From positions 1 through 64,000 of the forward strand of contig CANQHX010000003.1 in NCBI GenBank assembly GCA_947623905.1: 64,000 nucleotides of DNA. Reading direction: 5' to 3'. The DNA comes from an uncultured Lachnospiraceae bacterium (GTDB lineage Bacteria; Bacillota; Clostridia; Lachnospirales; Lachnospiraceae). The notes under the pieces are model-generated. The model was given only the letters and a program-made list of their open reading frames with translations, ran no database searches and had not been told where the DNA came from. Position numbers and translations under genes: made by a program. Shown here piece after piece: positions 7,170 through 37,222 of the stretch (position 1 is its first letter; each line of letters begins with the position of its first letter).

Positions 7170-7766
7170 GTGTACAGAAAGTATATAAAACGGATTCTTG
7201 GAGTACTTTTCGCATTGTTGGGGCTTCCGGTTTTCGCGGTTATTTTTATCGTAGTTGCTCCGATCATAATAATCGAAGATAAAGGGCCGGTGTTTTACAA
7301 TGCTCCGCGCATGGGCCAGAATGGAAAAATCTACAAGATGTTCAAATTTCGATCTATGAAGGTAAATTCGCCAGACATAAGGAATGCAGACGGAACTACA
7401 TTTAATTCGGAAGATGATCCAAGAGTGACAAAGGTTGGAAAGATATTACGTAAGACAAGCCTTGACGAAACACCGCAGCTTTTAAATATAATCAAAGGGG
7501 ATATGGCCTTCATTGGGCCGAGACCAGACCTGACTGACGGTGAAATGACCAGTGCAAGAAAAAAGAAGTTGACAGTTAGACCTGGTATTACAGGATACAG
7601 CCAGGCGTATTTCAGGAATTCTGACAGTGTGGAGCAGCGAATAAAAAATGATATCTACTATGTAGATAACATAAGTTTTGGGCTAGATGTTCGGATTTTT
7701 TTTAAAACGATACAGACGGTCTTATTTCATCAAAATGTATACCGCAATAGAGGTGATTATAAATGA
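7170..7766 (+). CDS. Small monotopic phosphoglycosyl transferase (PglC-like)
   Basis: A 198-aa enzyme reduced to the minimal catalytic unit: one N-terminal re-entrant hydrophobic helix (about 8-34), YKMFKFRSM (56-63), the catalytic D99-E100 in KTSLDETPQ, FIGPRPDL and RPGITGYSQ. PglC-type enzymes attach the phospho-sugar of UDP-diNAc-bacillosamine to undecaprenyl phosphate at the cytoplasmic face. The gene starts with GTG at 7170 after AAGGAGAGG, one base past the aminotransferase stop, and overlaps the next gene by 4 bases. Context with dehydratase, aminotransferase and acetyltransferase fits a bacillosamine-like first sugar; the exact sugar is inferred. Confidence 0.92.
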   Translation: MYRKYIKRILGVLFALLGLPVFAVIFIVVAPIIIIEDKGPVFYNAPRMGQNGKIYKMFKFRSMKVNSPDIRNADGTTFNSEDDPRVTKVGKILRKTSLDETPQLLNIIKGDMAFIGPRPDLTDGEMTSARKKKLTVRPGITGYSQAYFRNSDSVEQRIKNDIYYVDNISFGLDVRIFFKTIQTVLFHQNVYRNRGDYK

Positions 7767-8491
7767 GAACAGTGGAAGCCACCTGGGAAAAGCGAAATGT
7801 AGGCGTTGAATGCTTCGAGATTGAAATAGGTAAAAATGACTCCGTAGAAGCGGTACTTGACACGATACACGCTCGAAATGAAAAGTATTTTGTTGCTAAA
7901 GTATTAGCAGGGAGGGCTGATGTGCTCCTTGCTTTACAGAAAGAAGGTTTTCAATTCATAGAGATGAACTTTCAGACAGAGATTGAATTGTCTGAAAAAC
8001 CGAATCCTCCGGCTATTTGTGCAAATTTGATAGAAAGAACGGGCTATCATATTGGAGATGAAAAGGAAGCAGAACGGGTCATTGATGAAATACGGGCAGG
8101 AAACATCTTTTCAACGGATAAAGTTGCGTTAGATCCATTTTTTTCACAAAAAATAGCAGGACAAAGGTATGCATTTTGGACGCAGGATGTTCTTGCCTCT
8201 GATAAAGCAAAACTGATTATTACAGAATACAGCGGGGAAGATGTTGGTTTTAATATTGTTATAGATAAGGGAAGATATTACGACGGTTTTCTGGGCGGAC
8301 TTTTTACTGATTATTTGAATAGCGGATTAGGTTTTGCCAATGTTTATGCCTCATTAAATGCGGTGTTTAATCTGGGCGGAAGAAAAATATTCTCCGGTGT
8401 ATCTTCAAATAATTTTCAGATGCTAAAGCTGCATATGATGTTTGGAATGAAAATAAAAAGACTGACTTATAATTTGATTAAACATGTCTGA
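7763..8491 (+). CDS. WecD-like GNAT N-acetyltransferase for an amino sugar
   Basis: A 242-aa protein resembling WecD, the dTDP-fucosamine N-acetyltransferase. The features are the IFSTDKVALDPFFSQ stretch followed by AGQRYAFWT, typical of WecD-type enzymes, and a C-terminal SSNNFQMLKLHMMFG segment usual in GNAT folds. It overlaps the phosphoglycosyl transferase by 4 bases (ATGA), so the two are translationally coupled. The simplest role is acyl-CoA-dependent N-acylation of the 4-amino group made by the aminotransferase. Three other acyltransferase-like proteins lie downstream, so which one uses acetyl-CoA and which uses the dedicated acyl group is open. Confidence 0.75.
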   Translation: MRTVEATWEKRNVGVECFEIEIGKNDSVEAVLDTIHARNEKYFVAKVLAGRADVLLALQKEGFQFIEMNFQTEIELSEKPNPPAICANLIERTGYHIGDEKEAERVIDEIRAGNIFSTDKVALDPFFSQKIAGQRYAFWTQDVLASDKAKLIITEYSGEDVGFNIVIDKGRYYDGFLGGLFTDYLNSGLGFANVYASLNAVFNLGGRKIFSGVSSNNFQMLKLHMMFGMKIKRLTYNLIKHV

Positions 8492-8502
8492 GGAAATTTT
8501 GG

Positions 8503-10143
8503 ATGTATGAGAATGCTATATACTGCAAAAGATGCGGAAAAGAATTTGACCATGCTTCTTTGAAAAAGAAAAAATACATATGCGATTCCTGTGGTTTTCA
8601 TTTCAGGATTCCCGCAATGGATAGAATTGCCATGACAGTAGACAGGGGATCTTTTGAAGAATGGGAACCTGATTTGGAAACAGAAAATTATCTGAATGAT
8701 GTTGCATATGTGGAAACCCTGCAGAACGCAAAGAAAAAAACTGGACTGAAAGAGGCAATTATAATAGGAAAAGCTAGAGTCCTGGGTTTAGAGACAGCAA
8801 TCGGCGTATGTGACAGTAATTTCATAATGGCAAGTATGGGGCATGTTGTCGGCGAGAAAGTAACGGTTCTTTTTGAAAGGGCTGAGAAGGAAAAGCTTCC
8901 TGTGTTTATTTTCTGTTGTTCTGGAGGAGCAAGGATGCAGGAAGGCATGATTTCCCTTATGCAGATGGAAAAAACGTCAGCGGCAATAAAAAAACATTCC
9001 GATGCAGGATTGTTTTATTGTTCTATAATGACGGATCCCACTACCGGTGGGGTAACAGCAAGCTTTGCGTCTCTGGGCGACGTAATAATGGCAGAACCAA
9101 GTGCTACGGTAGGATTTGCTGGAAAGAGAGTTATAAAACAGACAATTCAGGAAGAATTGCCGAAGGGATTTCAGACGTCGGAATTTCTCCAGGAACATGG
9201 AATGATAGATGGCATTGTTCAAAGAAAACGAATACGTCAGATGATACAGTTTCTTGTCGTTACAAACAAAAACAGAACTGAAAATATAAATTTTACAACA
9301 GAGAAAAAAATAAGATTTCTTCCTTTTGCAGCAGAATATATACAGAGTTCTATCACTTCCTCAAAATCGGTGTGGGAGAAAGTGAAAGAAAATCGGGGAC
9401 CAAACCGACCGGCGTCTGTTGAATATATAAAAAATATTTTTGATGTGTTTGTAGAATTGAAGGGCGACAGGCTATATGGAGAAGATGGGGCGATCATAGG
9501 CGGTATTGCGATGTTAAATGGACAGCCAATTACAGTAGTTGCCGACTATAGGGGAAAAAATATTCAGGAAAACCTTGCGAGAAATTTCGGCATGCCCATG
9601 CCGGAAGGATATCGTAAAGCTCTTCGGCTGATGAAACAGGCGGAAAAGTTCAACCGGCCCATTGTATCGTTTGTAAATACACAGGGAGCCTATCCCGGCG
9701 TAGGCGCGGAGGAACGTGGTCAGGGCTGGGCTATTTCGCAAAACCTGTATGAGTTGTCTTCATTAAAAGTTCCGATTCTTGTCATCATAATCGGAGAAGG
9801 AGGAAGTGGCGGCGCGCTAGCGACGGCTGTAGGAGATGAAGTATGGATGCTTGAAAATGCCACATATTCTATTCTATCTCCCGAGGGGTATGCCTCTATT
9901 CTCTGGAAAGATTCAAGCCGAGCGTCTGAGGCGGCAGAAAAAATGAAGATGACATCAAAAGAACTCCGTGATCTTGGAATCATCGATAAGATAATTCCGG
10001 AGTTTGGAGGGGCAAGCAAAGAAAATATCAGTGAGATTTCCAAATATATGAAACAAGAAATTATTAAATTTCTTATAAAAATGAACAAACAAAGCAAAGA
10101 CATAATGCTGGAAAACAGATATAGAAGATTCAGAAAATTTTAA
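8503..10143 (+). CDS. Single-chain acetyl-CoA carboxylase carboxyltransferase (AccD-AccA fusion)
   Basis: A 546-aa fusion of the beta and alpha carboxyltransferase subunits, which make malonyl-CoA from carboxybiotin and acetyl-CoA. The N-terminal zinc ribbon uses C8, C11, C27 and C30. The AccD crotonase-fold core includes CCSGGARMQEG and PTTGGVTASFA, and ends near residue 265. The AccA half starts about residue 300, with GDRLYGEDGAIIGG, TQGAYPGVGAEERGQ and GEGGSGGALA. No biotin carrier or biotin carboxylase gene lies in the window, so it must borrow those subunits. A carboxyltransferase inside a glycan locus points to a dedicated malonyl supply for the carrier proteins and malonyl transacylase downstream. 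Confidence 0.93.
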   Translation: MYENAIYCKRCGKEFDHASLKKKKYICDSCGFHFRIPAMDRIAMTVDRGSFEEWEPDLETENYLNDVAYVETLQNAKKKTGLKEAIIIGKARVLGLETAIGVCDSNFIMASMGHVVGEKVTVLFERAEKEKLPVFIFCCSGGARMQEGMISLMQMEKTSAAIKKHSDAGLFYCSIMTDPTTGGVTASFASLGDVIMAEPSATVGFAGKRVIKQTIQEELPKGFQTSEFLQEHGMIDGIVQRKRIRQMIQFLVVTNKNRTENINFTTEKKIRFLPFAAEYIQSSITSSKSVWEKVKENRGPNRPASVEYIKNIFDVFVELKGDRLYGEDGAIIGGIAMLNGQPITVVADYRGKNIQENLARNFGMPMPEGYRKALRLMKQAEKFNRPIVSFVNTQGAYPGVGAEERGQGWAISQNLYELSSLKVPILVIIIGEGGSGGALATAVGDEVWMLENATYSILSPEGYASILWKDSSRASEAAEKMKMTSKELRDLGIIDKIIPEFGGASKENISEISKYMKQEIIKFLIKMNKQSKDIMLENRYRRFRKF

Positions 10144-10163
10144 TGAGAGGGGGAGATAGATGG

Positions 10164-10382
10164 ATGGATGTTGGTGAGATTATTTCACTTATTGAAAATT
10201 GTATGGATGTGGAAGAGGGTACTTTGGGACTTGAAGATAGTCTGTCGGACTATGAAGAATGGGATTCCCTTACAGCCCTTTCGGTCATTGCGGCTGTTGA
10301 TGAACAGTTTCATAAGTCATTGACTGGAAAAGACTTAAAGGGTGCGAAAACCATTTCAGACGTTGTCAGACTTATCAGATAA
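10164..10382 (+). CDS. Acyl carrier protein 1
   Basis: A 72-residue carrier protein with the phosphopantetheine site S35 in the EEWDSLTAL helix II motif. I start at the ATG at 10164, ten bases after GAGAGGGGGA; the in-frame ATG at 10143 overlaps the previous stop and lacks a site. It is a close paralogue of the next gene: both share the CMD.EEGTL opening and DYEEWDS, so a tandem duplication is likely. It probably carries the growing acyl chain as a thioester for the neighbouring condensing enzyme and reductase. Confidence 0.88.
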   Translation: MDVGEIISLIENCMDVEEGTLGLEDSLSDYEEWDSLTALSVIAAVDEQFHKSLTGKDLKGAKTISDVVRLIR

Positions 10383-10428
10383 GTTACATATAATGTTGCA
10401 ATATCACAATGAAAAAGGAGGTATTAGC

Positions 10429-10647
10429 ATGAGCACAAAGGAAAAACTTATTTTAATCGAAGAATGCATGGATCTTGAGGAAGGTACATTGAAACCTGAG
10501 GACAATCTCGCGGATTATGAAGAATGGGATTCTGTCACGGCTTTGTCCATCATTGCCATGATGGACGAACAGTTTCATAAAGTTGTATCAGGCGGTAATT
10601 TAAAAGAAGCAAAAACTGTAGCTGATATACTTGAAATGATGGAGTAG
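10429..10647 (+). CDS. Acyl carrier protein 2 (tandem paralogue)
   Basis: A 72-residue carrier protein with S35 in EEWDSVTAL as the phosphopantetheine attachment site. The ATG at 10429 follows a strong AAGGAGG at 10415-10421. Sequence and length nearly repeat the upstream carrier. Two near-identical carriers in a row may raise carrier dose or hold different intermediates (for example malonyl and acyl). The helix II site is intact in both, so neither looks decayed. Confidence 0.88.
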   Translation: MSTKEKLILIEECMDLEEGTLKPEDNLADYEEWDSVTALSIIAMMDEQFHKVVSGGNLKEAKTVADILEMME

Positions 10648-12389: not shown

Positions 12390-13460
12390 ATGGACATTGT
12401 ATTTAAAGGAAAAAAAATAAGCGGAATACTGGCTGTGCTGCCGGAAACGGAGTGTTATTTTGATGACGAAGTCGGAAATTACAACTTTCCGGAGAAGCAA
12501 ACCATGCGCTTGAAAAAAGTGATGGGCTACAACAAACACAGGCTGTCTAAAGACACATCAACGGTCTCTGATTTTGCCGCATATGGTATGGAATATATTC
12601 TTGAAAAAGGATGGATCCGTAAGGAAGAAATTGGAGCAGTGCTTGTGGTTACACTCTGTCCGGATTACTATGTGCCGCACATCAGCACAATTATTCAGGG
12701 CAAATTTGAACTGGCAGATGATGTACTGTGCCTTGATATTGCACAGGGATGCTGTGGTTTCCTGATCGGCCTTATGGAGTCTTTTTTGTTGCTGGAGCAT
12801 ATGAAAGATAAAAAAATTGTGCTGATCAACGGAGATGTGTTAAGCCATAAGGTTTCCAGGCGGGACAGAAATGATTTCCCTTTAGCTGGCGATGCCACAA
12901 CCATCACAATCATTGAAAATGACAGTCAAGCAGGCGATATCTATTATGAAATGCACATGGACGGGAGCCGTGGGGAGTCGTTAATAATACCTGCCGGTGG
13001 GTTCCGTATGCCAAGCACCCCTGAGACGGCAAGAATGACGGATCAGGGCGATGGAAATCTCAGGGCGTTGGATCACATGCACATGGATGGGGCCGGCGTA
13101 TTCAATTTCGTACAATGGGAAGTGCCGCCGTTGATAGATCGTCTGCTTGCTGTGGCAGGAGAGACAATAGATACGGTTGATTATTTTTTATTTCATCAGC
13201 CGAATAAATTTATGTTAAAAAAGCTGGCGGAAAAAGCCGGGATTCCACTGGATAAGATTCCCATGGATTTAGTTGAGAACTATGGCAATCCCAGCGGCGC
13301 ATCCATCCCTATGGTGGCCGTTACGGATCTGAAAAAAGAACTTACATCCAGTAAGTACAAATGCTGCCTGGCAGCGTTTGGTTCAGGATTGGCATGGGGA
13401 GGAATGGTGCTGGAATTTGGGGGTTTTGAAAATTGCGAAATGATAGTAAGCAATCTGTAA
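12390..13460 (+). CDS. KAS III-like 3-oxoacyl-ACP synthase
   Basis: A 356-aa thiolase-fold condensing enzyme with the full FabH-type Cys-His-Asn triad: C121 in AQGCCGF, H269 in LFHQPNKFM and N300 in NYGNPSGAS. KAS III enzymes condense a CoA- or carrier-bound starter with malonyl-ACP. A dedicated carboxyltransferase, malonyl transacylase and ketoreductase in the same operon supply and process such a reaction. There is no KAS I/II, dehydratase or enoyl reductase in the window, so a single extension round giving a beta-keto or beta-hydroxy acyl group is most likely. The starter unit is unknown. Confidence 0.9.
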   Translation: MDIVFKGKKISGILAVLPETECYFDDEVGNYNFPEKQTMRLKKVMGYNKHRLSKDTSTVSDFAAYGMEYILEKGWIRKEEIGAVLVVTLCPDYYVPHISTIIQGKFELADDVLCLDIAQGCCGFLIGLMESFLLLEHMKDKKIVLINGDVLSHKVSRRDRNDFPLAGDATTITIIENDSQAGDIYYEMHMDGSRGESLIIPAGGFRMPSTPETARMTDQGDGNLRALDHMHMDGAGVFNFVQWEVPPLIDRLLAVAGETIDTVDYFLFHQPNKFMLKKLAEKAGIPLDKIPMDLVENYGNPSGASIPMVAVTDLKKELTSSKYKCCLAAFGSGLAWGGMVLEFGGFENCEMIVSNL

Positions 13461-13489: not shown

Positions 13490-14305
13490 ATGTTTTCGGT
13501 AAATGAACTAATGGGACAGATTGACCGCTTGAAAAACAACAGGGAAATGCTGTCTAACAATTTTTTATCGTTGGCGGACCTGGAAAAGTTTTCGCTGGAG
13601 CCGGACTCAAAGCTTGTCTATAACGAGAAGGCAATTGCTTTACTTTGCCGTGATAATGGAATCAATCGGATACATTTTCATCTCGCCTCAAACAGAGATG
13701 GGGCGTCATTAAGGGAATTGCTTCCTCAGCACCCCGAAGATCCCATAGTGGCGGATTGTATCGGAAAGCAATCGCACTTGGACCAGCTGGAGCAAGCTCT
13801 TTGTGATATTGGTTTTGAGACATACGTCCATATGAGCCGCTGGCGGACGAGTCATATAAATTTTCTGCCGGAAACCAAACTGCAGTTTATGCGTGAGTCT
13901 GACAATTTCCGGAAGGCCGGTTTGGAAGATGCAGAAGAGATTTATAAAATTTTGTATGACACATTTGATCCTTATTATTCGCAGCTTCCCACCAAGGATT
14001 TTTTGCGGGAACTGATCAGGGAAGGTTTGGTTTTCTGTGCTCTGATAAAAGGGCATGTTGCTGCGGTTGAATGTATGCAGAAGGTTGGCCGCAACGGGAT
14101 ATACTGCTATGAACTTGCCGTGATTCCCAAGCACAGAAACAGCGGGATCGGTTATTATATCTGGCAGTATGCGCTGAGTCACTTTCCGGATTGCCGCAAC
14201 TATACGTCCTGGACGGACAACAGGAATACAGCCAGCAACCATTTACACGAGATGCTGGGTTTTGCTTACGATGGGTTGATTGATTATGTTCTGATATATC
14301 GATAG
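13490..14305 (+). CDS. GNAT-family N-acyltransferase
   Basis: A 271-aa protein whose C-terminal part (about 130-271) is a GNAT fold. It has the CoA-binding motif A in AVIPKHRNSGIGYYIWQY, then a SWTDNRNTASNHLHEMLGF segment, the usual 'N..a..lYe.lGF' end of the fold. The N-terminal 130 residues look like a degenerate or divergent second GNAT-like half and contain no motif I recognise. The ATG at 13490 follows GGAGG. It may N-acylate a sugar or a carrier-bound amino acid made by the adenylation enzyme downstream; the substrate cannot be assigned. Confidence 0.75.
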   Translation: MFSVNELMGQIDRLKNNREMLSNNFLSLADLEKFSLEPDSKLVYNEKAIALLCRDNGINRIHFHLASNRDGASLRELLPQHPEDPIVADCIGKQSHLDQLEQALCDIGFETYVHMSRWRTSHINFLPETKLQFMRESDNFRKAGLEDAEEIYKILYDTFDPYYSQLPTKDFLRELIREGLVFCALIKGHVAAVECMQKVGRNGIYCYELAVIPKHRNSGIGYYIWQYALSHFPDCRNYTSWTDNRNTASNHLHEMLGFAYDGLIDYVLIYR

Positions 14306-14394: not shown

Positions 14395-14631
14395 ATGAGT
14401 ATCAAAGAGAAGATCAGAAAGATTATAGCGGAAATCCTTAATGTAGATGAAAAGGAGATAGACGACGATACAGCTATCGGGGATATTCAGGGATGGGATT
14501 CCTTAAATCAGCTGAAAATCCTTTCGGCAGTAGAGACAGAGTTTAACATTCAGTTTACGCCGGACGTGCTGATGGAACTGGAAGATTTTTCGGATATTGT
14601 CCAGGCAGCCGAGGAAAGAGCCGGGAAATAA
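14395..14631 (+). CDS. Acyl carrier protein 3
   Basis: A 78-residue carrier protein with S36 in the IQGWDSLNQLKIL phosphopantetheine motif. It starts at an ATG after ATGGAGGAAAAA. It is distinct from the tandem pair at 10164-10647 and closer to stand-alone carriers found next to AMP ligases. The next gene is an AMP-dependent ligase only 70 bases downstream, so this is its likely acyl acceptor. Confidence 0.9.
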   Translation: MSIKEKIRKIIAEILNVDEKEIDDDTAIGDIQGWDSLNQLKILSAVETEFNIQFTPDVLMELEDFSDIVQAAEERAGK

Positions 14632-14701
14632 TTTCCATTATTCAGAATGCAATGTTTGAAAAAACAGGATTTTCAATGAAAGAGAACTTGTGAGGAAACA
14701 G

Positions 14702-16192
14702 ATGGCTTCAAATATCTGTGATACAAAAAAAACAGTGGTCCAAAGAATACTGGAACATGCGCTGGCAGCACCAGACGATGTTGCCATTATTGCGAAAGAT
14801 AAACAAACATCTTATTGTGCGCTAAAAGATATGATCCTTTCCATTCACAAATGGCTGCTTGCTCAGGGAATCCGACAAGGAGACTGTGTCGCCGTCCAGG
14901 CGCTCCATGAGGATATATGCATAGCCTGTTTCTATGCGGTGCATCTGACCGGCGCGATACTTGTCCCATTGGAAAGAAGCGCTCCGTTTGAGAAGATACA
15001 GTCTATAGCAGTCGAGATAGGGGCTGTTTTGATAATAAGTCTGCAAAAGGAGAGCGCCTCCGCAATCCAGTGGGTTGATTATGAAACCATACGGCTGGCT
15101 GTCAGTGAGACTGCTGCTCCTGTAGCGGATCCTATTGTGTATCCGGATATTGACATGCCATGTGAGATGATCTTTACTACAGGAACCACCGGAAAATCAA
15201 AAGGCGTTCTGATGACCCACCGGAGCATCTCCTGGTATGCCTACAGTATTTGTAAATGTGTCGAGATGAAGCCAGGGAACCGTTTTTTCATTACGACACC
15301 GCTAAACCATGCCGGAGGTCTGAGGAGGACCCATTTGTCATTGGCAAATGGCTGTTGCGTTGTATATATGGATGGAATGGGGAATCTGGCCAGGTATTTC
15401 CGGTATATCCGGGAATATGCTGTCACGTCCTTGTATCTGCCGCCAGTGGCCCTTCGTATTCTTTTGCTCAGAACCGGTGACAAATTATCGGAATTCCGGG
15501 ATCAGATAGATTTTGTGTATTCAAGTTCGTCGGCGCTTCCTGCCGGGGATTGTGAAAAATTGGCGCAGCTTCTGCCAAAGACACGATTATATAATGCCTA
15601 TGAGGCATCAGAGACCCCAGGAGTCAGCGCATATGATTACAATACAGACGGCATTCGAAAGGACTGCGTGGGGAAAGCTAATGTCGGCGTTGAATTGGCG
15701 ATTATGGACGATGAGGGAAGAATCATACTTAATGGGGAAAATGAAGGGAAGATCTGCGTCAGAAGCAGAATGAATATGAAAGAGTATTATCAGGAACCGG
15801 AGCTAACTTCTTCTGTGTGGAAAAATGAATGGTTCGTATCCAATGATCTTGGATATATGGATGAACAGGGGAGAGTTTATTACAGGGGACGCCTGGGAGA
15901 TGTCATCAATATCGGCGGATATAAGATCGCACCTACAGATGTGGAAGAAACAGCGCTTTTAAGCGGTTTGGTAGATGAGTGCATTTGTGTGGAGTGCCGT
16001 GATGGCAGTGAGATCCCTTTTCTTAAATTGATCGTAGTTGTGGGAAAAGAAAAAACATTCGACCCTGAAATATTGAGAACATTTCTTGCAGATAGACTGG
16101 AGGGATATAAGATCCCCCAGGAAATCGTAGCAGCAGATAAGATATCAAAGACATTTAACGGAAAGCTTGACAGGAAAGCATACAGGGTATAG
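14702..16192 (+). CDS. AMP-dependent acyl/aryl-CoA or acyl-carrier ligase
   Basis: A 496-aa ANL-superfamily adenylating enzyme that activates a carboxylic acid with ATP and passes it to CoA or a carrier thiol. Motifs: the P-loop TTGTTGKSKG, YNAYEASETPG in place of the usual YG.TE, the SNDLGYMDEQG aspartate, YRGRLGDVINIGG, and the C-terminal lysine in NGKLDRKAY. I start at the ATG at 14702, preceded by GAGG; a GTG 12 bases upstream is the alternative. It follows carrier protein 3 and precedes an alcohol dehydrogenase. Its acid substrate is unknown. It differs clearly from the amino-acid adenylating type at 20170. Confidence 0.88.
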   Translation: MASNICDTKKTVVQRILEHALAAPDDVAIIAKDKQTSYCALKDMILSIHKWLLAQGIRQGDCVAVQALHEDICIACFYAVHLTGAILVPLERSAPFEKIQSIAVEIGAVLIISLQKESASAIQWVDYETIRLAVSETAAPVADPIVYPDIDMPCEMIFTTGTTGKSKGVLMTHRSISWYAYSICKCVEMKPGNRFFITTPLNHAGGLRRTHLSLANGCCVVYMDGMGNLARYFRYIREYAVTSLYLPPVALRILLLRTGDKLSEFRDQIDFVYSSSSALPAGDCEKLAQLLPKTRLYNAYEASETPGVSAYDYNTDGIRKDCVGKANVGVELAIMDDEGRIILNGENEGKICVRSRMNMKEYYQEPELTSSVWKNEWFVSNDLGYMDEQGRVYYRGRLGDVINIGGYKIAPTDVEETALLSGLVDECICVECRDGSEIPFLKLIVVVGKEKTFDPEILRTFLADRLEGYKIPQEIVAADKISKTFNGKLDRKAYRV

Positions 16193-16237
16193 CTGTGTGG
16201 AAGCGTGTACAATTTATGGAAGTGAGAGGAACCGGGT

Positions 16238-17365
16238 ATGTGGAAACCACAAAGTATTTATTCAGATTATGTACTTCAGCAGCCTGTCGTTTTATTCGGC
16301 CGAAATGCAGTCAGTGGGCTTGCGGTATATCCGTGTGCCAGAGTGGCGGTTTTGTGCGGCAGCTCTCTGCATGAGGAAGATAAGAATTTTTTGCGTAAGG
16401 TATTTAAAAAGAAGGCATTGCATTTTATTGTCAGAAGCTGGAGTGGGGAGCCGGATCTGGAAAGCCTGAAGGGAAGTATTTCTGAACTGGAAAAAATCAA
16501 GCCGGACATGATCATAGCAGTAGGAGGCGGTTCTGTCATAGACGGGGCAAAACTTTGCAGACTGTATTATGAGTTTCCTTACTTTCACGTGAATGAAACC
16601 AAACTTTCGCAGCTTACATTTAAAACCGTATTTATAGCAGTTCCAACAACAGTGGGAAGTGGAACGGAGGTCTCCTCAGCGGCAGTCTTTATAAACAGGG
16701 AATATGAAAGAAAAGAAATGGTCGTATCCCATGATCTGCAGCCTTCTGTAGTAGTGCTGGATCCGGGATATGTGAAAAATGCTCCGGAATCTGTCGTAGT
16801 ATCTTCTATGTTGGATGCGGTGGCGCATATAGTGGAAGGTTTTGTGTCTGTCATGAAAAACGGCCTTATGGATATTTATGCGGAAATGGGGCTGCAGATT
16901 TTATTTCAGGAATTTTCAAAAAAGAATTCGGAAGAAAGAGATTTTCAAAGAATTCAGTTTGCAGGATATCTGGGCGGTTTGGTACAGAACCACTGCATTG
17001 TAGGAGCAGCCCATGCTATTGCACATCAGCTTACATCATATGGATTTTCTCATGGAGAAGCAGTGGCGTTGCTTTTACCTGGGGTGATACGCTTAAACTG
17101 CAGTTTTGAGGGGATTAAAGAGAAATATGAAAACATGTGTCAGGCATCGAATATAGAAGGCGTATCAGGGCTGGCTGAATTCATTGAATATCAGTCCCAA
17201 AAAGCCGGGATCGCAGATCGAAAAGACGAATTGAAGACAGTGCTGAACGGGCTTAAGTCTGAAGATAGATTTATCGAAAACGTAGTGAATGACAGAGGCG
17301 GGAAAGGAAACCCGGTGCCGATTACTGAGGAATATCTGGTTAAATTAGTGGAGGCATATCTATGA
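16238..17365 (+). CDS. Iron-containing (group III) alcohol dehydrogenase
   Basis: A 375-aa member of the iron-dependent alcohol dehydrogenase family, which interconverts aldehydes and alcohols with NAD(P)H. Visible motifs are GGGSVIDGAKL for the cofactor pyrophosphate, TTVGSGTEVSS, and metal-site histidines in HIVEG, AHAIAHQL and FSHGEAVALLLP. The stop overlaps the start of the LuxE-LuxC fusion by 4 bases (ATGA), so the two are coupled. The pair suggests acid to aldehyde to alcohol reduction, with this enzyme doing the second step. Glycerol-phosphate or butanol-type substrates of the same family remain alternatives. Confidence 0.88.
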   Translation: MWKPQSIYSDYVLQQPVVLFGRNAVSGLAVYPCARVAVLCGSSLHEEDKNFLRKVFKKKALHFIVRSWSGEPDLESLKGSISELEKIKPDMIIAVGGGSVIDGAKLCRLYYEFPYFHVNETKLSQLTFKTVFIAVPTTVGSGTEVSSAAVFINREYERKEMVVSHDLQPSVVVLDPGYVKNAPESVVVSSMLDAVAHIVEGFVSVMKNGLMDIYAEMGLQILFQEFSKKNSEERDFQRIQFAGYLGGLVQNHCIVGAAHAIAHQLTSYGFSHGEAVALLLPGVIRLNCSFEGIKEKYENMCQASNIEGVSGLAEFIEYQSQKAGIADRKDELKTVLNGLKSEDRFIENVVNDRGGKGNPVPITEEYLVKLVEAYL

Positions 17366-19863
17366 ATGGTTTGAAATCAGAGGAGTTATTAAAAAAAGCC
17401 CCATATGATTTTGGGAAGAAGGACAAGGCTCCCGGAAGTTTGTTTTATGAAGCATTGAAAGAGGAACTTTGCTACCACTATGAGAATAATACTATGTATC
17501 GCAAGTTCTGTGAACGGAAAGGGTTTGATCCACAAAGCTTTGACGGGGATTTATCAAAGATTCCGCCTGTGCAGGTAAGTGTGTTTAAAGAATTGGGGAT
17601 GGGATTGAATTCAGTTCCAAACGAGAACATTCGACTGACTCTGCAGTCCTCAGCTACATCCGGCATACCAAGCAGCATACCGGTGGATAAGATAACGTCT
17701 AGAAGACAGGCCAGATCCATGGTTCATATTATCGGTAATTTTATAGGGAATGAGAGAAAACCTTTCCTGATCATGGATGTGGATCCGGCAAGCGGTTTTA
17801 GAAACTTGTTAGGGGCAAGGTATGCTGCGGTCAGCGGATATTTGAATTTTGCTTCGAAAGCGGAATATTATCTCAAAGTAGACAGAAACGGATTGTACTA
17901 TTTTGACGTGGAAGCAATTACAGAGTATGTGTCCAACCTGAAGAACAGTGAACCGGTCATTGTATTTGGATATACTTATCTGCTCTATTCTGAAGTGGTC
18001 AGGCCCATGACGGAAAGGGGGCTTCAGTTTCCTCTCCCGAAAGGGTCCAAAGTCATCCATATCGGAGGATGGAAAAAGCTGGAGAGTGAGAAAATCAGCA
18101 GGGAGGAATTTGATAAGAAGACAGCTCAGATTTTTGGCATCAAGCCGGAAAATGTTATTGATATTTATGGGTTTACAGAGCAGATGGGTTTGAATTACCC
18201 TACCTGTCCATGTGGCTGTAAACATGCTCCGCTGTATTCAGAAGTCATAGTCCGTGACCCGGTGACGAAGGAGGTTTTGCCGGAGGGGCACCAAGGGGTT
18301 TTGGAATTTGTTTCCCCAGTGCCGCATTCTTATCCTGGTAATGCTGTCCTGACAGATGATATTGGGGTGATTGACGGCGGAGAATGTCGGTATGGCCGTG
18401 GAGGAACACGCTTCAGGATCATTGGAAGACTAAAGAAGGCTGAGATAAGAGGATGCGGGGATATTCTGTCGCAAAAGTTAAAGTTTGAAAGCGGGAATAG
18501 CCCGTTGCAGGAGGAAGCTGCCGGGACTCAGCCCTCAAGATATCGAGTGGAGTTTTTCACTGGTGAAGGCCTGCCGGCAGGTTTGAACCCTATGGAATCC
18601 TTAAATCGGATCATGGATGCGCTGGAGAGCAATCACGATTGGATCAGGAAACAACCGGTAGACGCATTGATAGGACTGATATCCCAGACTGCGAAAAAAT
18701 GGACGACAGATGAAACTCAGGCAGGGCGAAGATTGAAGATGAATGGGCTTGGTTTTCTCTCGTCCTGGTGCAGCGCGGAACATCTGACATCTATCATGAC
18801 GGAAGGCTTGAACGGAAACAGAATGTATATGGATTCGTTTCTTCCCGTATCGGAAGGAAGTGTTCAGTATAGACGTGCCATACCGCGTGGACTGGTCTGC
18901 CATTGGCTTGCAGGCAATGTGCAGGTTCTGGGGATGTTTGCGTTGGTCGAGAGCATTTTAACTAAAAATGTAAACCTTTTGAAACTTTCCTCTAGAGATG
19001 GAGGCGTATTTAAATATTTACTGAGAGCCTTTGAAGGGGAGGTATACACAACCCCGGGCGGCTGGACGATCTCAGGAGACGAACTTCTGAAAACAATCGC
19101 AGTTGTCTATTATGGACATGCAGAGAAAGAACTTGGTATCCAGATGTCAAAAAGGGCGGCTGTTCGGATTGCTTGGGGTGGTGCGGAATCGGTGACGGCA
19201 GTTGCGAATTATCCAGCTGAATATGACTGTGAAGATATCATTCTGGGACCTAAACTCAGCTTTAGTGTAGTGGCAAAGGAAGCCTTAGAGGATGAGCATA
19301 AGGCACGGAAACTTGGAAGAAGGATCGGGGTCGATGCCAGCGTGTTTGATCAGGAGGGATGTTCGTCCACCCACAATGTATTTGTGGAAGAAGGAGGAGC
19401 AGTATCGCCGGAAATGTTTGCGGCTTACCTGGCAGACGGCATGAAAAAAGCGGCAGTCCAGATACCCAAAATGCCAGCTTCCGTCGAACAGATTTCTGCG
19501 GTGCATTCTGCGCGGGGCGTATACGATTTCAAGGGGATCGTATATGGAGATCCGGAAACGGTCTGGACGGTTATATATGATCCGGAAGAAGAACTGTGCG
19601 GGCCAGTCTATTCGAGAGTCGTGTTTGTCCATCCTGTCAGAGATATTATGGATGCGGCAGAGTACGTCAGCGAGGATATACAGACAATAGGACTGGCTGC
19701 GGAGGGAGAAAAAGCTCTGCAGTTCGCGGATGCAGCATCGATGAAAGGGGCTGTAAGGTTCCCTGCCTGTGGCAAAATGCTTAATTTTGATTCCCCGTGG
19801 GACGGAATGTACCTGACGGACAGAATGGTCAGGTGGATTACTATGGGCGGACCGCTGGTCTGA
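17362..19863 (+). CDS. Fused LuxE-like acyl-protein synthetase and LuxC-like acyl reductase
   Basis: An 833-aa two-enzyme protein. Residues 1 to about 370 are LuxE-like: an ATP-dependent acyl activating domain with SSATSG at 96-101, DIYGFTEQMG at 267-276, a Cys-rich patch (C282, C284, C286) and GRLKKAEIRG. Residues about 400-833 are LuxC-like, an NADPH-dependent acyl reductase. The RAIPRGLVCHWLAGNV segment matches the family, and the presumed acyl-accepting cysteine C667 is in QEGCSSTHN. In bioluminescent bacteria these are separate subunits that turn a fatty acid into its aldehyde. No luxAB-like genes occur here, so the role is biosynthetic. The fusion itself suggests direct hand-over of the acyl-enzyme intermediate. 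Confidence 0.87.
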   Translation: MNGLKSEELLKKAPYDFGKKDKAPGSLFYEALKEELCYHYENNTMYRKFCERKGFDPQSFDGDLSKIPPVQVSVFKELGMGLNSVPNENIRLTLQSSATSGIPSSIPVDKITSRRQARSMVHIIGNFIGNERKPFLIMDVDPASGFRNLLGARYAAVSGYLNFASKAEYYLKVDRNGLYYFDVEAITEYVSNLKNSEPVIVFGYTYLLYSEVVRPMTERGLQFPLPKGSKVIHIGGWKKLESEKISREEFDKKTAQIFGIKPENVIDIYGFTEQMGLNYPTCPCGCKHAPLYSEVIVRDPVTKEVLPEGHQGVLEFVSPVPHSYPGNAVLTDDIGVIDGGECRYGRGGTRFRIIGRLKKAEIRGCGDILSQKLKFESGNSPLQEEAAGTQPSRYRVEFFTGEGLPAGLNPMESLNRIMDALESNHDWIRKQPVDALIGLISQTAKKWTTDETQAGRRLKMNGLGFLSSWCSAEHLTSIMTEGLNGNRMYMDSFLPVSEGSVQYRRAIPRGLVCHWLAGNVQVLGMFALVESILTKNVNLLKLSSRDGGVFKYLLRAFEGEVYTTPGGWTISGDELLKTIAVVYYGHAEKELGIQMSKRAAVRIAWGGAESVTAVANYPAEYDCEDIILGPKLSFSVVAKEALEDEHKARKLGRRIGVDASVFDQEGCSSTHNVFVEEGGAVSPEMFAAYLADGMKKAAVQIPKMPASVEQISAVHSARGVYDFKGIVYGDPETVWTVIYDPEEELCGPVYSRVVFVHPVRDIMDAAEYVSEDIQTIGLAAEGEKALQFADAASMKGAVRFPACGKMLNFDSPWDGMYLTDRMVRWITMGGPLV

Positions 19864-20169: not shown

Positions 20170-21696
20170 ATGAGAACAACAGTATTATCTTATCTGGAAG
20201 AAAGTGCAAGAAAATATCCTGGAAAAACAGCCTTTTTTGATGAGAAAAATGAGATCACATTTTCCGAACTGAAAGAGCAGGCTGTAGATCTGGCATGGCA
20301 TATCAAGGGACAGATCAGCAGGAGGAGAAACCCTGTTCTTGTATATTTGCCGAAGGATATCAGTTCCATAGTGGCTTTTATGGGGATCCTTTACAGCGGG
20401 AATTTCTACACGCCAACAGATATCCGCTTTCCTGCGGAAAAGGTGATAAGTGTTATGGATGCGCTAAATCCTGCGGCAGTATTGGTGAATGACCAGACGA
20501 AGGAGAAATTCCTTAAGTTTGCAGCGGACCGGAATGTGATATTAATAAACATTGATGATGTAGAAAAAGGCGAACATCATGATTCTGAGGAGCTGGTCAA
20601 TGCGATCCTTGATGTGGATCCAGTTTATGTGTTTTTTACATCAGGCTCAACAGGCGTCCCCAAGGGTGTGATCATCAATAATCACAATGTCATTGATTAC
20701 ATAGACTGGGCCGTCAGCGCATTGCCGATATCTGACAAAACGATTATGGGAAGCCAGTCCCCGTTTTATTTTGACATTTCGACGCAGGATATCTATGCAA
20801 CTTTGAAAACAGGGGCAACATTGGGGATCATTCCGCCAAAGTATTTTGCCTTCCCGGCCAGAGCCATGCAGTTCATTAAGGAGCGCCACATCAACTTCCT
20901 TTACTGGGTTCCTTCTGCGTTTGTCAATGTAGCGAATTTTGACATTTTAAGCTCTGTTGAACTGGGTGAAGTGGAACTGATCATGTTTGGCGGTGAAGTG
21001 ATGCCGGTAAAACAGCTGAATTACTGGAAACGACATCTGCCCAATCTGAAGACGATTGCAAATGTCTATGGCCCGACGGAGGCAACGGTAAACTGCACAT
21101 ATTACATAGTTGACCGGGAATTTGAGGACAATGAGACGCTGCCGCTGGGCAAAGCCTGTGAGAATACAGGTCTGCTTGTCCTTGATGAGGATGGGAATAA
21201 CATAGAAAAAACGCAGGTTGGCGTACAGGGCGAGCTTTGTGTTTATGGAAGTTCCCTGTCGGCAGGTTACTGGGATGATGCAGAAAAGACGGATGAAAAG
21301 TATATAATCAATCCGCTTTGCAAGCATTACCAGGAAAAAATGTATCTCACAGGAGATCTTGTTTATTACAACGACCGGGGAGAACTGGTGTTTGCAGGCA
21401 GAAAAGATTTTCAGATCAAACATTCCGGATATCGTATTGAGCTGGGTGAGATCGAAGCGGCAGCCATGGGGAATAAAGCGGTAACGAATGTGTGTGCATC
21501 ATATGATTCTGTGAAGAAACAGATTGTTCTGTTTTATCAGGGCGATGCAGGCGAAGAGGAAGTAAGGGATTACCTGTTGGATGTGATCCCAAAATACATG
21601 GTTCCTACCGTGTATCATCAGCTGCAGAGATTTCCTTATAACGATAATGGAAAGATCGACAGGAAAAAATTAAATGAGGAATACATTCTGAATTGA
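20170..21696 (+). CDS. Stand-alone amino-acid adenylation enzyme (DltA/NRPS A-domain-like)
   Basis: A 508-aa adenylation domain that should activate an amino acid as its AMP ester and load it on the adjacent carrier. Core motifs are FFTSGSTGVPKG (A3), FYFDISTQDI (A4, with the Asp that usually holds an alpha-amino group), MFGGEVMP, NVYGPTEATVN (A5), GELCVYG, YLTGDLVYYNDRGEL (A7), GRKDFQIKHSGYRIELGEIE (A8) and NGKIDRKKL with the A10 lysine. The overall look is close to D-alanine:carrier ligases, but dltB and dltD are absent, so teichoic-acid alanylation is unlikely to be its role. The amino acid cannot be named confidently. Confidence 0.9.
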   Translation: MRTTVLSYLEESARKYPGKTAFFDEKNEITFSELKEQAVDLAWHIKGQISRRRNPVLVYLPKDISSIVAFMGILYSGNFYTPTDIRFPAEKVISVMDALNPAAVLVNDQTKEKFLKFAADRNVILINIDDVEKGEHHDSEELVNAILDVDPVYVFFTSGSTGVPKGVIINNHNVIDYIDWAVSALPISDKTIMGSQSPFYFDISTQDIYATLKTGATLGIIPPKYFAFPARAMQFIKERHINFLYWVPSAFVNVANFDILSSVELGEVELIMFGGEVMPVKQLNYWKRHLPNLKTIANVYGPTEATVNCTYYIVDREFEDNETLPLGKACENTGLLVLDEDGNNIEKTQVGVQGELCVYGSSLSAGYWDDAEKTDEKYIINPLCKHYQEKMYLTGDLVYYNDRGELVFAGRKDFQIKHSGYRIELGEIEAAAMGNKAVTNVCASYDSVKKQIVLFYQGDAGEEEVRDYLLDVIPKYMVPTVYHQLQRFPYNDNGKIDRKKLNEEYILN

Positions 21697-21709: not shown

Positions 21710-22393
21710 ATGAGTACAGAAAAAACCGTATTTCTCCTGCCGTTTGCCGGGGGAAGTTCACTGATCTACAATCAATGGCAGCTGGATCATTTCCGGTTTC
21801 ATGGGATTGATTACAGCGGTCACGGGTTTCGCTATCAGGAACCTGCGGCGCAGGACATGGAAGAGCTTGTCAATGATGTTATTCAACAGATAGAAAGTGT
21901 TCACCCGGCATGTTTTTCTCTTTTTGGACACAGTATGGGCGGACTGCTGGCATGGCTTGTGGCGCAAAAGCTTAAGAAAAAGCCGGACGTCCTGTTTGTC
22001 TCCGCCTGTGAACCACCGGAATGTCTGGATGTCAAGAGGTATGGAAAATATCTGAACGATGATGTGCTGATGCAGTATATGACAGATTATAAGCGCATGA
22101 CGGAAAGACAGCGAAGTTCAAAAGTATTTAAAACAATTTTATTTCCTGTTATTCGCAATGACTTCAGAATATTATCCGAGTATAAGTACAAGCCTGCGGA
22201 CATGCTGGATGTGCCCATGGTGATCCTGTATAGCAGAGAAGATACGATGATGAGATATGAGATGATGGGGCAATGGAAAGATTATAGTAAAAGTGTAATA
22301 TTTAAGCAGATCAGAGGAGATCATTTTTATCTGGAAGAAGAACAGAACCGGGAACTGATCCTTCAGATCATCGATAGGGTAATATCAGAATGA
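21710..22393 (+). CDS. Type II thioesterase
   Basis: A 227-aa alpha/beta hydrolase of the stand-alone thioesterase II family. Such enzymes clear misloaded acyl groups from carrier proteins or release products. It shows LLPFAGGSS at the start, the nucleophile S75 in GHSMGG, an acidic SREDTMM loop and a histidine in GDHFYLEEE. These are the usual catalytic Ser-Asp-His positions. It overlaps the transacylase gene by 4 bases. Its presence is a strong sign that the module works by carrier-bound thioesters, as in NRPS and PKS clusters. Confidence 0.92.
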   Translation: MSTEKTVFLLPFAGGSSLIYNQWQLDHFRFHGIDYSGHGFRYQEPAAQDMEELVNDVIQQIESVHPACFSLFGHSMGGLLAWLVAQKLKKKPDVLFVSACEPPECLDVKRYGKYLNDDVLMQYMTDYKRMTERQRSSKVFKTILFPVIRNDFRILSEYKYKPADMLDVPMVILYSREDTMMRYEMMGQWKDYSKSVIFKQIRGDHFYLEEEQNRELILQIIDRVISE

Positions 22394-34264: not shown

Positions 34265-35089
34265 ATGGATAATGCTACTTTAAGAAAAGCGCAGCTGGCG
34301 CAATTGGAGATGGCAAAAAGAGTTAAAGAGATTTGCGACGCAAATGGCATACAGTATTTCCTGGATGGTGGTACATTGTTAGGTGCGGTTCGACACCAGG
34401 GATTTATTCCATGGGACGACGATCTGGATATAGGGATGTTGCGAGAAGACTATGATAAATTTATTAGTATTGCACAGTCTGCCCTCGGAGATCAGTATTT
34501 TTTGCAGACATGGGACACGGATGATCATTATTGGAACCCTTATGCGAAAATTCGGAAAATTGGGACCATTTATCGAGAGGAAGGAACAAAAGGAGTATTG
34601 ACCCATAATGAATTGTTCATTGATATTTTTCCTTTTGATTTTTTTCCTCAGAATCGGATGAAGCTAAAAATAATGCGCACAAAGATTAAGGTCTACTGGA
34701 AGGCAATAACGATAAAAGCAGGACTCTATCCATGGTTATCCAGCACTGGTTTTGTCAAAAAATGTTTGTCAATGGTAAAGAATATCCCGGCCATCCTTTT
34801 ATGCTTTTTAACCCGGGAAAAAATCAAGGATAAGTATTTTGAAACCATGACTGCTTATAATCGGCAAGACACAATATATGTTGATGAAGAAGCTGGATCT
34901 TTGGCAGGGAAACATCAACTGCCTATCGGCTGTTTTGATAAGACCGTGGAATTACTTTTTGAAAACGAATATTTTAAATGTCCTCAAGGCTATGATGAAA
35001 TTCTTAGGTTGTATTATGGTGATTATATGACGCCACCGCCAGAAGATAAGAGGGTAAATATACATGGCGTGGTAGAAGTTAAATTATAA
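34265..35089 (+). CDS. licD: LicD-family phosphotransferase (phosphocholine-type decoration)
   Basis: A 274-aa LicD-family protein. The family motif is present: FLDGGTLLGAVRHQGFIPWD followed by D52, D53 and D55, and IDIFPFDFFPQN. LicD enzymes move a phosphodiester group, usually phosphocholine from CDP-choline, onto a sugar of a surface glycan at the cytoplasmic face. The next gene encodes a choline-phosphate cytidylyltransferase/choline-kinase-like protein, which makes CDP-choline the most likely donor. Other CDP-alcohols, such as CDP-ethanolamine or CDP-ribitol, cannot be excluded. Confidence 0.9.
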   Translation: MDNATLRKAQLAQLEMAKRVKEICDANGIQYFLDGGTLLGAVRHQGFIPWDDDLDIGMLREDYDKFISIAQSALGDQYFLQTWDTDDHYWNPYAKIRKIGTIYREEGTKGVLTHNELFIDIFPFDFFPQNRMKLKIMRTKIKVYWKAITIKAGLYPWLSSTGFVKKCLSMVKNIPAILLCFLTREKIKDKYFETMTAYNRQDTIYVDEEAGSLAGKHQLPIGCFDKTVELLFENEYFKCPQGYDEILRLYYGDYMTPPPEDKRVNIHGVVEVKL

Positions 35090-35162
35090 AAACGCTGACT
35101 GTAATTAATAATTGATTTCGGATTTAAAATAGCTCGTTAACTTTAGTAGACTGGAGACGTGT

Positions 35163-36938: not shown

Positions 36939-36951
36939 GCAATCCTTTAAA

Positions 36952-36995
36952 TGCAAAGTAATGGGATAAATTTTTATATTATCCCATACTTTGCA
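36952..36995. repeat. Long hairpin after the LicC/LicA-like gene
   Basis: TGCAAAGTAATGGGATAA (36952-36969) pairs with 36979-36995 as a 17-bp stem with a single bulged A and a 9-base AT loop. No T tract follows. It begins 13 bases after the stop and ends 46 bases before the small protein gene, so it may punctuate or stabilise the mRNA between choline enzymes and transporter. Confidence 0.65.
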
Positions 36996-37041
36996 GATAT
37001 TCGATTGCCTTGCCAAAATTTGATGAAAGGAGGAAAAATAA

Positions 37042-37134
37042 ATGGAACTTGGTATTGCTATAGGGCTTGGAGTTTGGTTTGTTACAATTAGCGTAGCAGC
37101 TACTATTCGAGTCTTCAAAGATTTTACTAAATAG
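37042..37134 (+). CDS. 30-residue membrane protein next to a symporter
   Basis: A 30-codon gene with a strong AAAGGAGG site at 37026-37033 and ATG at 37042. The product MELGIAIGLGVWFVTISVA continues with a second short segment ending RVFKDFTK: one membrane helix with a positively charged end. It lies 88 bases upstream of a sodium:solute symporter. Tiny proteins of this type beside SSS symporters have been catalogued as symporter small accessory proteins (from memory), so it is probably a subunit or stabiliser of the transporter. It is below most gene-finder limits. Confidence 0.65.
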   Translation: MELGIAIGLGVWFVTISVAATIRVFKDFTK

Positions 37135-37222
37135 AGGGCATAGTATAAGCACTAGTGGATTTGAAACTTTAAGGTAAAATTTTTTTGTGACTATGTTCAT
37201 AAAATAAAGGAGGATAAAAAAA

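What the first reader, a model, noticed from the sequence alone, without database searches (positions are those of the whole stretch)
17362..19863. LuxE and LuxC joined in a single 833-aa protein
The two fatty-acid reductase subunits of bioluminescence are fused, synthetase first and reductase second, with the acyl-accepting cysteine C667 and the SSATSG nucleotide loop both preserved. No luciferase is present. The fused enzyme and the coupled alcohol dehydrogenase predict formation of an aldehyde or alcohol, which is odd if the end product is an amide-linked acyl group. It may instead make an amino-alcohol or an aldehyde used for condensation.
Basis: partly seen in the sequence, partly recalled or inferred. 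Interest (0 to 1): 0.62.

Follow-up and report, generated by a model that had tools for sequence, protein, structure and literature searches.

The report
RfbN-type fused LuxE-LuxC acid reductase
This gene encodes a real two-in-one enzyme that most likely turns a small carboxylic acid into an aldehyde, the first step in making a side group for the sugar coat of a gut bacterium; the same kind of enzyme (RfbN) is known from the cholera O1 antigen, so it has nothing to do with light.

Summary
Window 17362-19863 encodes one intact 833-aa chain: LuxE (PF04443, residues 10-373) followed by LuxC (PF05893, 430-825). The ATP loop SSATSG (96-101), the LuxE acyl cysteine C365 and the LuxC cysteine C667 are invariant in 52 aligned fused proteins. 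It is under strong purifying selection, and the genome has no luciferase-family gene.

The fusion is not new. It sits last in a cassette, ACP - AMP ligase - Fe-alcohol dehydrogenase - LuxEC, that recurs in surface-glycan loci of several phyla. It corresponds to rfbK-L-M-N of Vibrio cholerae O1, proposed in 1995 to make 3-deoxy-L-glycero-tetronate (2,4-dihydroxybutanoate), the amide-linked acyl group of the O1 antigen.

Neighbours in other genomes (FdtA, DegT aminotransferases, acyltransferases) fit N-acylation of amino sugars.

Unusual here: the window and two close relatives have replaced the RfbL-type ligase (26-30% identity, against 47-68% among other non-proteobacterial loci) and added a KASIII, a GNAT and an amino-acid A-domain. 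The acid, and so the final acyl group, remains unproven.

The parts
17362..19863 (+). LuxE-LuxC fusion (RfbN-type), 833 aa
17389..18480 (+). LuxE (acyl-adenylating) domain, residues 10-373
   Evidence: PF04443 E 4.3e-109; model residues 2-374 match PaaK-type ligases, Z 22-26
17647..17664 (+). SSATSG nucleotide loop, residues 96-101
   Evidence: invariant in 52/52 fused proteins
18454..18456 (+). C365, expected acyl-carrying cysteine of the LuxE half, in a low-confidence (flexible) segment 359-391
   Evidence: aligned to LuxE of 7xc6; invariant; pLDDT < 50
18649..19836 (+). LuxC (ALDH-fold reductase) domain, residues 430-825
   Evidence: PF05893 E 1.5e-79; model residues 391-833 match 7xc6 LuxC, Z 23.9, 410 aligned
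19360..19362 (+). C667, acyl-accepting cysteine of the LuxC half
16238..17365 (+). Iron-containing alcohol dehydrogenase (RfbM position), 375 aa; overlaps the fusion by 4 bases
   Evidence: PF00465/PF25137; D193, H259, H272 conserved in 28/28 and H197 in 27/28
14690..16192 (+). AMP-dependent acyl ligase (RfbL position, but a different lineage), 500 aa
   Evidence: PF00501; 26-30% to the cassette ligases of most other loci, 72-81% to L003/L004
14395..14631 (+). Acyl carrier protein (RfbK position), 78 aa, DSL serine present
   Evidence: PF00550; sequence
12390..13460 (+). KASIII-type ketoacyl synthase, 356 aa; same subfamily (48-49%) directly follows LuxEC in Maribacter/Winogradskyella
13490..14305 (+). 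GNAT acyltransferase, candidate for transfer of the acyl group to an amino sugar
   Evidence: PF00583; conserved in L003/L004
19921..20157 (+). Second ACP (DltC-like)
20170..21696 (+). Amino-acid adenylation (A-domain/DltA-like) enzyme
   Evidence: TIGR01733 over cut-off; linear gramicidin synthase LgrA match
21710..22393 (+). Type II thioesterase
   Evidence: PF00975
22390..23337 (+). FabD-type malonyl-ACP transacylase
   Evidence: TIGR00128 over cut-off
8503..10143 (+). Fused AccD-AccA carboxyltransferase (malonyl supply)
   Evidence: PF03255, PF01039
10689..11462 (+). SDR (FabG-like) reductase
   Evidence: PF13561
11509..12363 (+). AAC(3)-family (Antibiotic_NAT) acyltransferase; relatives stand next to the cassette in L006, L010, L051
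   Evidence: PF02522
3688..7766 (+). Amino-sugar start: PglF-like dehydratase, DegT aminotransferase, PglC-like phosphoglycosyltransferase

Best explanation
P0001 is an RfbN-type, self-contained carboxylic acid reductase for a surface polysaccharide. The LuxE half activates the free carboxyl of a small acid with ATP as acyl-AMP and passes it to C365 on a flexible arm. C365 hands the acyl group to C667 of the LuxC half, which reduces it with NAD(P)H to the aldehyde. The adjacent Fe-alcohol dehydrogenase reduces the aldehyde to the alcohol. The product is a hydroxy acid whose other carboxyl is loaded by the AMP ligase on the ACP and transferred by a GNAT- or AAC(3)-type enzyme to the amino group of a capsule sugar. 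The likeliest substrate of the conserved cassette is a C4 diacid such as L-malate, giving 2,4-dihydroxybutanoate (3-deoxy-tetronate) as in V. cholerae O1. In the window the replaced ligase and the added KASIII suggest the unit may be changed or lengthened by two carbons. Shown here: domains, residues, operon, conservation, ancestry. Taken from the literature: the O1 product and the proposed pathway. Inferred: substrate, direction, product, and the receiving sugar.
For: Both domains and both cysteines are intact. The LuxC half covers nearly all of 7xc6 LuxC (Z 23.9) and the LuxE half has a PaaK-type ligase fold. C365 lies in a flexible segment between two confident domains, and the C667 loop and ATP loop are also flexible. 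The Fe-ADH is adjacent in 24 of 51 fused loci and an AMP ligase lies upstream in 46 of 51; the others are mostly cut by contig ends. V. [quoted passage not shown] VC0248-0252 are assigned to tetronate synthesis (PMC3441752), and RfbL is described as activating 2,4-dihydroxybutanoate for RfbK or CoA (PMC12208996). Neighbours elsewhere are amino-sugar acylation sets: RmlA-FdtA-[cassette]-hexapeptide acyltransferase-DegT in Marinomonas; FdtA-GNAT-[cassette]-DegT in Anaerovibrio; AAC(3)-like before the cassette in three loci. The RfbN-type fusion is one clade (98/84); its closest split relatives, L053 and L056, have the same cassette with separate luxE and luxC.
Against: No held collection gave the V. 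cholerae RfbN sequence, so the link to it rests on published annotation, gene order and protein sizes. The 1995 pathway paper (Morona et al.) could not be read. No biochemistry exists for these proteins in the papers read. The window's ligase is not of the RfbL lineage, so the loaded acid may differ. Bacteroidales relatives lack the Fe-ADH, so reduction to the alcohol is not universal. Malate is inferred from the carbon skeleton alone.
Confidence: 0.68

Rival explanations
1. The enzyme makes a long-chain fatty aldehyde or alcohol for a lipid-modified glycan, as the LuxE/LuxC genes of flagellin glycosylation islands have been read ('liposugar').
For: LuxE and LuxC of luminous bacteria act on C14 acyl chains (established knowledge); related split luxE/luxC with ACP, FabG and AMP ligase occur in Aeromonas and enterobacterial flagellin islands and were so interpreted (PMC7874193, PMC4875605). 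The window also has AccDA, FabD, KASIII, SDR and ACPs.
Against: The halves score far below the luminous LuxE/LuxC cut-offs (93 against 550 bits, 105 against 750) and are separated from luminous LuxE by a very long branch. The only cassette of this layout with a known end product, as published, serves a C4 acyl group. No full fatty-acid elongation set was identified in the cassette.
Confidence: 0.13
2. The aldehyde is the real product, condensed with another unit (by KASIII, transketolase or an aldolase) or transaminated to an amino-alcohol.
For: In Bacteroidales relatives the Fe-ADH is absent and a two-gene transketolase plus SDR stands next to the cassette in 15 of 51 loci, never together with Fe-ADH; transketolases use aldehyde acceptors (established knowledge).
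Against: In the window the Fe-ADH overlaps the fusion by 4 bases and keeps its metal ligands. KASIII enzymes use thioesters, not aldehydes. No aminotransferase lies inside the cassette; the DegT gene is a nucleotide-sugar type.
Confidence: 0.12
3. The LuxC half reduces an acyl-ACP made by the AMP ligase and the LuxE half mainly serves acyl transfer, so the order of steps is ligase, ACP, reduction.
For: ACP and ligase are co-conserved with LuxEC.
Against: The LuxE ATP loop and C365 are invariant, which argues for activation of a free acid by LuxE itself.
Confidence: 0.07

Closest known systems
RfbN (VC0251) with RfbK-L-M of the Vibrio cholerae O1 tetronate cassette (Morona et al. 1995, as cited in PMC4772473 and PMC3441752)
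   Same: LuxE and LuxC activities on one chain; same gene order ACP - AMP ligase - Fe-ADH - LuxEC; surface polysaccharide locus with 4-amino-sugar synthesis; no luciferase
   Different: Window ligase is a different lineage; extra KASIII, GNAT, A-domain, thioesterase, FabD and AccDA; capsule locus of a Lachnospiraceae-like genome; product unknown
LuxC-LuxE fatty acid reductase complex of luminous bacteria (PDB 7xc6)
   Same: Same two folds, both cysteines and the ATP-dependent acid-to-aldehyde chemistry expected
   Different: Separate subunits; long-chain acyl substrate; luciferase partner; LuxE far away in the tree (branch length about 4)
Split LuxE/LuxC of Aeromonas and enterobacterial flagellin glycosylation islands
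   Same: ACP, AMP ligase, LuxE and LuxC next to nonulosonate and glycosyltransferase genes
   Different: Unfused; 3-oxoacyl-ACP reductase (SDR) instead of Fe-ADH. By gene content they resemble the split sister clade found here in Lachnospiraceae and Vibrio; their own sequences were not placed in the tree

Membership tests
RfbN-type O-antigen reductase (tetronate cassette) | N-terminal LuxE and C-terminal LuxC on one chain | tested here: met
RfbN-type O-antigen reductase (tetronate cassette) | Gene order ACP - AMP ligase - Fe-ADH - LuxEC | tested here: met
   window 14395-19863; other loci
RfbN-type O-antigen reductase (tetronate cassette) | Member of the single fusion clade that includes the Vibrio/Marinomonas cassettes | tested here: met
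   50 fused LuxE halves form one group, 98/84
RfbN-type O-antigen reductase (tetronate cassette) | Ligase of the lineage found in the other cassettes (taken as RfbL lineage) | tested here: not met
   window ligase 26-30% to the cassette ligases of most other loci, which are 47-68% to each other outside proteobacteria
RfbN-type O-antigen reductase (tetronate cassette) | Direct sequence comparison with V. cholerae O1 RfbN | not tested
   no V. cholerae O1 copy was recognised in the genomes searched; relatives in other Vibrio are 46-48% identical
RfbN-type O-antigen reductase (tetronate cassette) | Product is 3-deoxy-tetronate linked as amide to an amino sugar | not testable with these tools
   needs enzymology and glycan NMR
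Bioluminescence fatty acid reductase (LuxCE) | Luciferase LuxAB in the genome | tested here: not met
   no PF00296 match in the own genome
Bioluminescence fatty acid reductase (LuxCE) | Over the NCBIfam LuxE and LuxC equivalog cut-offs | tested here: not met
   93 of 550 and 105 of 750 bits
Bioluminescence fatty acid reductase (LuxCE) | Conserved ATP loop, LuxE Cys and LuxC Cys | tested here: met
Carboxylic acid reductase (CAR, A-PCP-R) | SDR-type reductase domain fused to an A-domain and a carrier domain | tested here: not met
   reductase half is LuxC/ALDH fold and Pfam finds no carrier domain in the chain

The most novel reading that the evidence does not exclude
In the window's lineage the RfbM-RfbN pair has been rewired into a small assembly line: a hydroxy acid made from a diacid by LuxEC plus Fe-ADH is loaded by a new ligase, extended by a KASIII with locally supplied malonyl-ACP and joined with an amino acid from the A-domain/ACP pair, giving a hydroxylated acyl decoration not yet described on a Gram-positive capsule. 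The conserved cassette itself would be a widespread natural, single-protein route from malate to malate semialdehyde and so to 2,4-dihydroxybutyrate, a compound for which the metabolic engineering literature states that no natural pathway has been described (PMC5481828).
Probability: 0.35. Interest if true: 0.6.

Novelty: new member of a known kind. Interest (0 to 1): 0.38.

Why it matters
The fusion ties an old proposal, untested biochemically in the papers read (RfbKLMN makes the tetronate of the cholera O1 antigen), to a cassette spread over Bacillota, Bacteroidota, Spirochaetota and Pseudomonadota, including anaerobes and marine bacteria whose proteins can be studied safely. If the substrate is malate, the RfbM-RfbN pair is a natural route to 2,4-dihydroxybutyrate, whereas a 2017 pathway paper states that none has been described and engineered one (PMC5481828). 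It also warns that 'LuxE/LuxC' annotations in glycan loci need not mean fatty aldehydes or lipids.

Tried and rejected
Assembly artefact or chance ORF: rejected (independent 86% identical relative, dN/dS 0.07, 52/52 residue conservation). Bioluminescence: rejected (no luciferase-family gene, scores far below the lux cut-offs, distant branch). Succinate to 4-hydroxybutyrate was my first hypothesis; a literature search for it gave nothing, and the V. cholerae tetronate precedent fits better, though succinate or malonate are not excluded. The plasmid collection held only half matches. The V. cholerae RfbN sequence was sought among 196 Vibrio genomes; the four fused hits are in genomes of 4.9-5.8 Mb, and the neighbourhoods looked at are nonulosonate loci, not perosamine ones. 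Contexts of the window ligase's nearest relatives in the family (33-37%) were uninformative. NCBIfam profiles for the Fe-ADH point to several short-chain aldehyde reductases without a decision. Comparing the model with PDB folds gave PaaK-type ligases, including 2-hydroxyisobutyryl-CoA ligase, at tied Z values, so the match says nothing on substrate. Full-text searches on LuxE, LuxC and polysaccharide mostly returned reporter-gene papers.
Full report
1. What is there. The ORF 17362-19863 is intact and encodes 833 aa. Pfam assigns residues 10-373 to LuxE (E 4.3e-109) and 430-825 to LuxC (E 1.5e-79), both over nearly the whole profile. Against the solved P. phosphoreum LuxC-LuxE complex 7xc6, C365 aligns with the cysteine near the LuxE C-terminus and C667 with the LuxC cysteine in the DQQAC motif. 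An AlphaFold2 model from 38 fused sequences has mean pLDDT 82 and pTM 0.66. Residues 359-391 around C365, the ATP loop 98-103 and the C667 loop 664-668 are the flexible parts. The C-terminal half matches LuxC of 7xc6 with Z 23.9, rmsd 3.6 over 410 residues; the N-terminal half matches PaaK-type AMP ligases with Z 22-26 (Foldseek).

2. It is conserved, not an accident. A scan of one genome per species returned 54 loci; 51 group together as fused proteins in a clustering, 49 of them at least 780 aa long. SSATSG, C365 and C667 are invariant in 52 of 52 including the window. dN/dS against the nearest relative is about 0.07. Carriers include Lachnospiraceae, Anaerovibrio, Treponema parvum, many Bacteroidales, Flavobacteriaceae, Vibrio, Agarivorans and Marinomonas. 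Within the window's own family it is rare: among 200 sampled family genomes no other full-length match of this type appeared, although a minority carry separate luxE and luxC genes.

3. Ancestry. In a tree of 83 LuxE domains the RfbN-type fusion is one group (98/84). Its next neighbours are L053 (Neomarinimicrobiota) and L056 (Alphaproteobacteria), where luxE and luxC are separate in the same operon order, although both sit on long branches. Luminous LuxE proteins are far away (branch about 4). One other genome of the same family (L065) has a second fusion inside a clade of split genes, so joining probably happened at least twice.

4. The cassette. In the window the order is ACP (14395) - AMP ligase (14690) - Fe-ADH (16238) - LuxEC (17362), with a 4-base overlap between the last two. 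An AMP ligase lies upstream in 46 of 51 fused loci, the rest being mostly cut by contig ends. An adjacent Fe-ADH occurs in 24 and a transketolase pair in 15; no locus has both (families). The presence or absence of Fe-ADH follows the tree, so this exclusion is not many independent events.

5. Function. V. [quoted passage not shown] RfbL is described as activating 2,4-dihydroxybutanoic acid for CoA or RfbK, and deletion of wbeL (rfbL) abolishes the O1 antigen (PMC12208996, PMC3441752). A paper on Riemerella states that the LuxE domain occurs in RfbN and cites Morona et al. 1995 for the pathway (PMC4772473). WbeL is 471 aa; the cassette ligases of Vibrio and Agarivorans are 473 aa. That VC0248 is RfbK, the ACP, is my reading of the letter order. 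My inference: LuxEC reduces one carboxyl of a C4 diacid, malate being the one with the right skeleton, to the semialdehyde; the Fe-ADH gives the 4-hydroxy group; the ligase loads the remaining carboxyl on the ACP; an acyltransferase makes the amide. So a reductase in an amide-forming pathway is not odd.

6. Neighbourhood evidence. In Marinomonas (L049) the order is RmlA - FdtA - cassette - hexapeptide acyltransferase - DegT aminotransferase. In Anaerovibrio (L011) it is FdtA - GNAT - cassette - DegT. L009 has a GNAT directly after LuxEC, and L006, L010 and L051 have an AAC(3)-like acyltransferase before the cassette. In L005 (Lachnospiraceae), L018 (Carboxylicivirga) and the Vibrio/Agarivorans loci, the cassette is followed by a family of about 340 aa without a Pfam match and a polysaccharide deacetylase, with NeuB and NeuA nearby. 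All of this fits N-acylation of amino sugars and nonulosonates.

7. What is special in the window. LuxEC (60-66%) and Fe-ADH (48-52%) are normal members compared with the related Firmicutes, Treponema and L013 loci, but the ligase is only 26-30% identical to the ligases of most other cassettes, which are 47-68% to each other outside proteobacteria. L003 and L004 share the window's ligase (81%, 72%). The same three loci also have a KASIII and a GNAT before the ACP, and a DltC-like ACP and an amino-acid A-domain (after LuxEC in the window and L003, before the KASIII in L004); the window and L003 also have a thioesterase. A KASIII of the same subfamily (48-49%) directly follows LuxEC in Maribacter and Winogradskyella. 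I read this as a modified acyl group, possibly extended by malonyl-ACP made with the local AccDA and FabD; this is unproven.

8. Verdict. A real, conserved enzyme of a known kind, in a locus that is a new variant. The main value is that a 1995 proposal becomes testable in harmless organisms, and that a natural route to 2,4-dihydroxybutyrate probably exists although the engineering literature states that none has been described (PMC5481828).

Noticed in passing
window 34265-38815: LicD, a 591-aa protein with winged-helix, nucleotidyltransferase and choline-kinase matches, and an SSF symporter follow the capsule genes: probable phosphocholine decoration of the same polysaccharide.
   Followed up: partly
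L065 / L131 (genome G021, contig C60): A second LuxE-LuxC fusion (788 aa) nested in a clade of split genes, so probably an independent joining event.
   Followed up: partly
L015, L017, L019, L020, L022, L027, L028, L034, L036, L037, L040, L041, L043, L044, L045: Mostly Bacteroidales variant: transketolase N and C genes, often an SDR, then ACP, AMP ligase and LuxEC, without Fe-ADH. The aldehyde may be a transketolase acceptor there.
   Followed up: partly
L005:12474-13493, L018:12508-13563, L047:12520-13560, L048:12890-13861: A protein family of about 340 aa directly or nearly directly after LuxEC in three phyla (no Pfam match for L018, no NCBIfam match for L048), followed by a polysaccharide deacetylase and near NeuB/NeuA; candidate acyltransferase.
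   Followed up: no
L004:6634-7767: A 377-aa AspT/YidE-type antiporter-like gene (profiles are about 550 long) inserted between the ligase and the Fe-ADH, possibly a dicarboxylate link.
   Followed up: no
window 7763-8491: A 242-aa protein without Pfam match between the PglC-like transferase and AccDA; the sequence looks distantly GNAT-like to me.
   Followed up: no
window 8503-10647: Fused AccD-AccA and two small, overlapping, related ACP genes at the start of the acyl gene block; no biotin carboxylase or BCCP gene was seen beside them.
   Followed up: no
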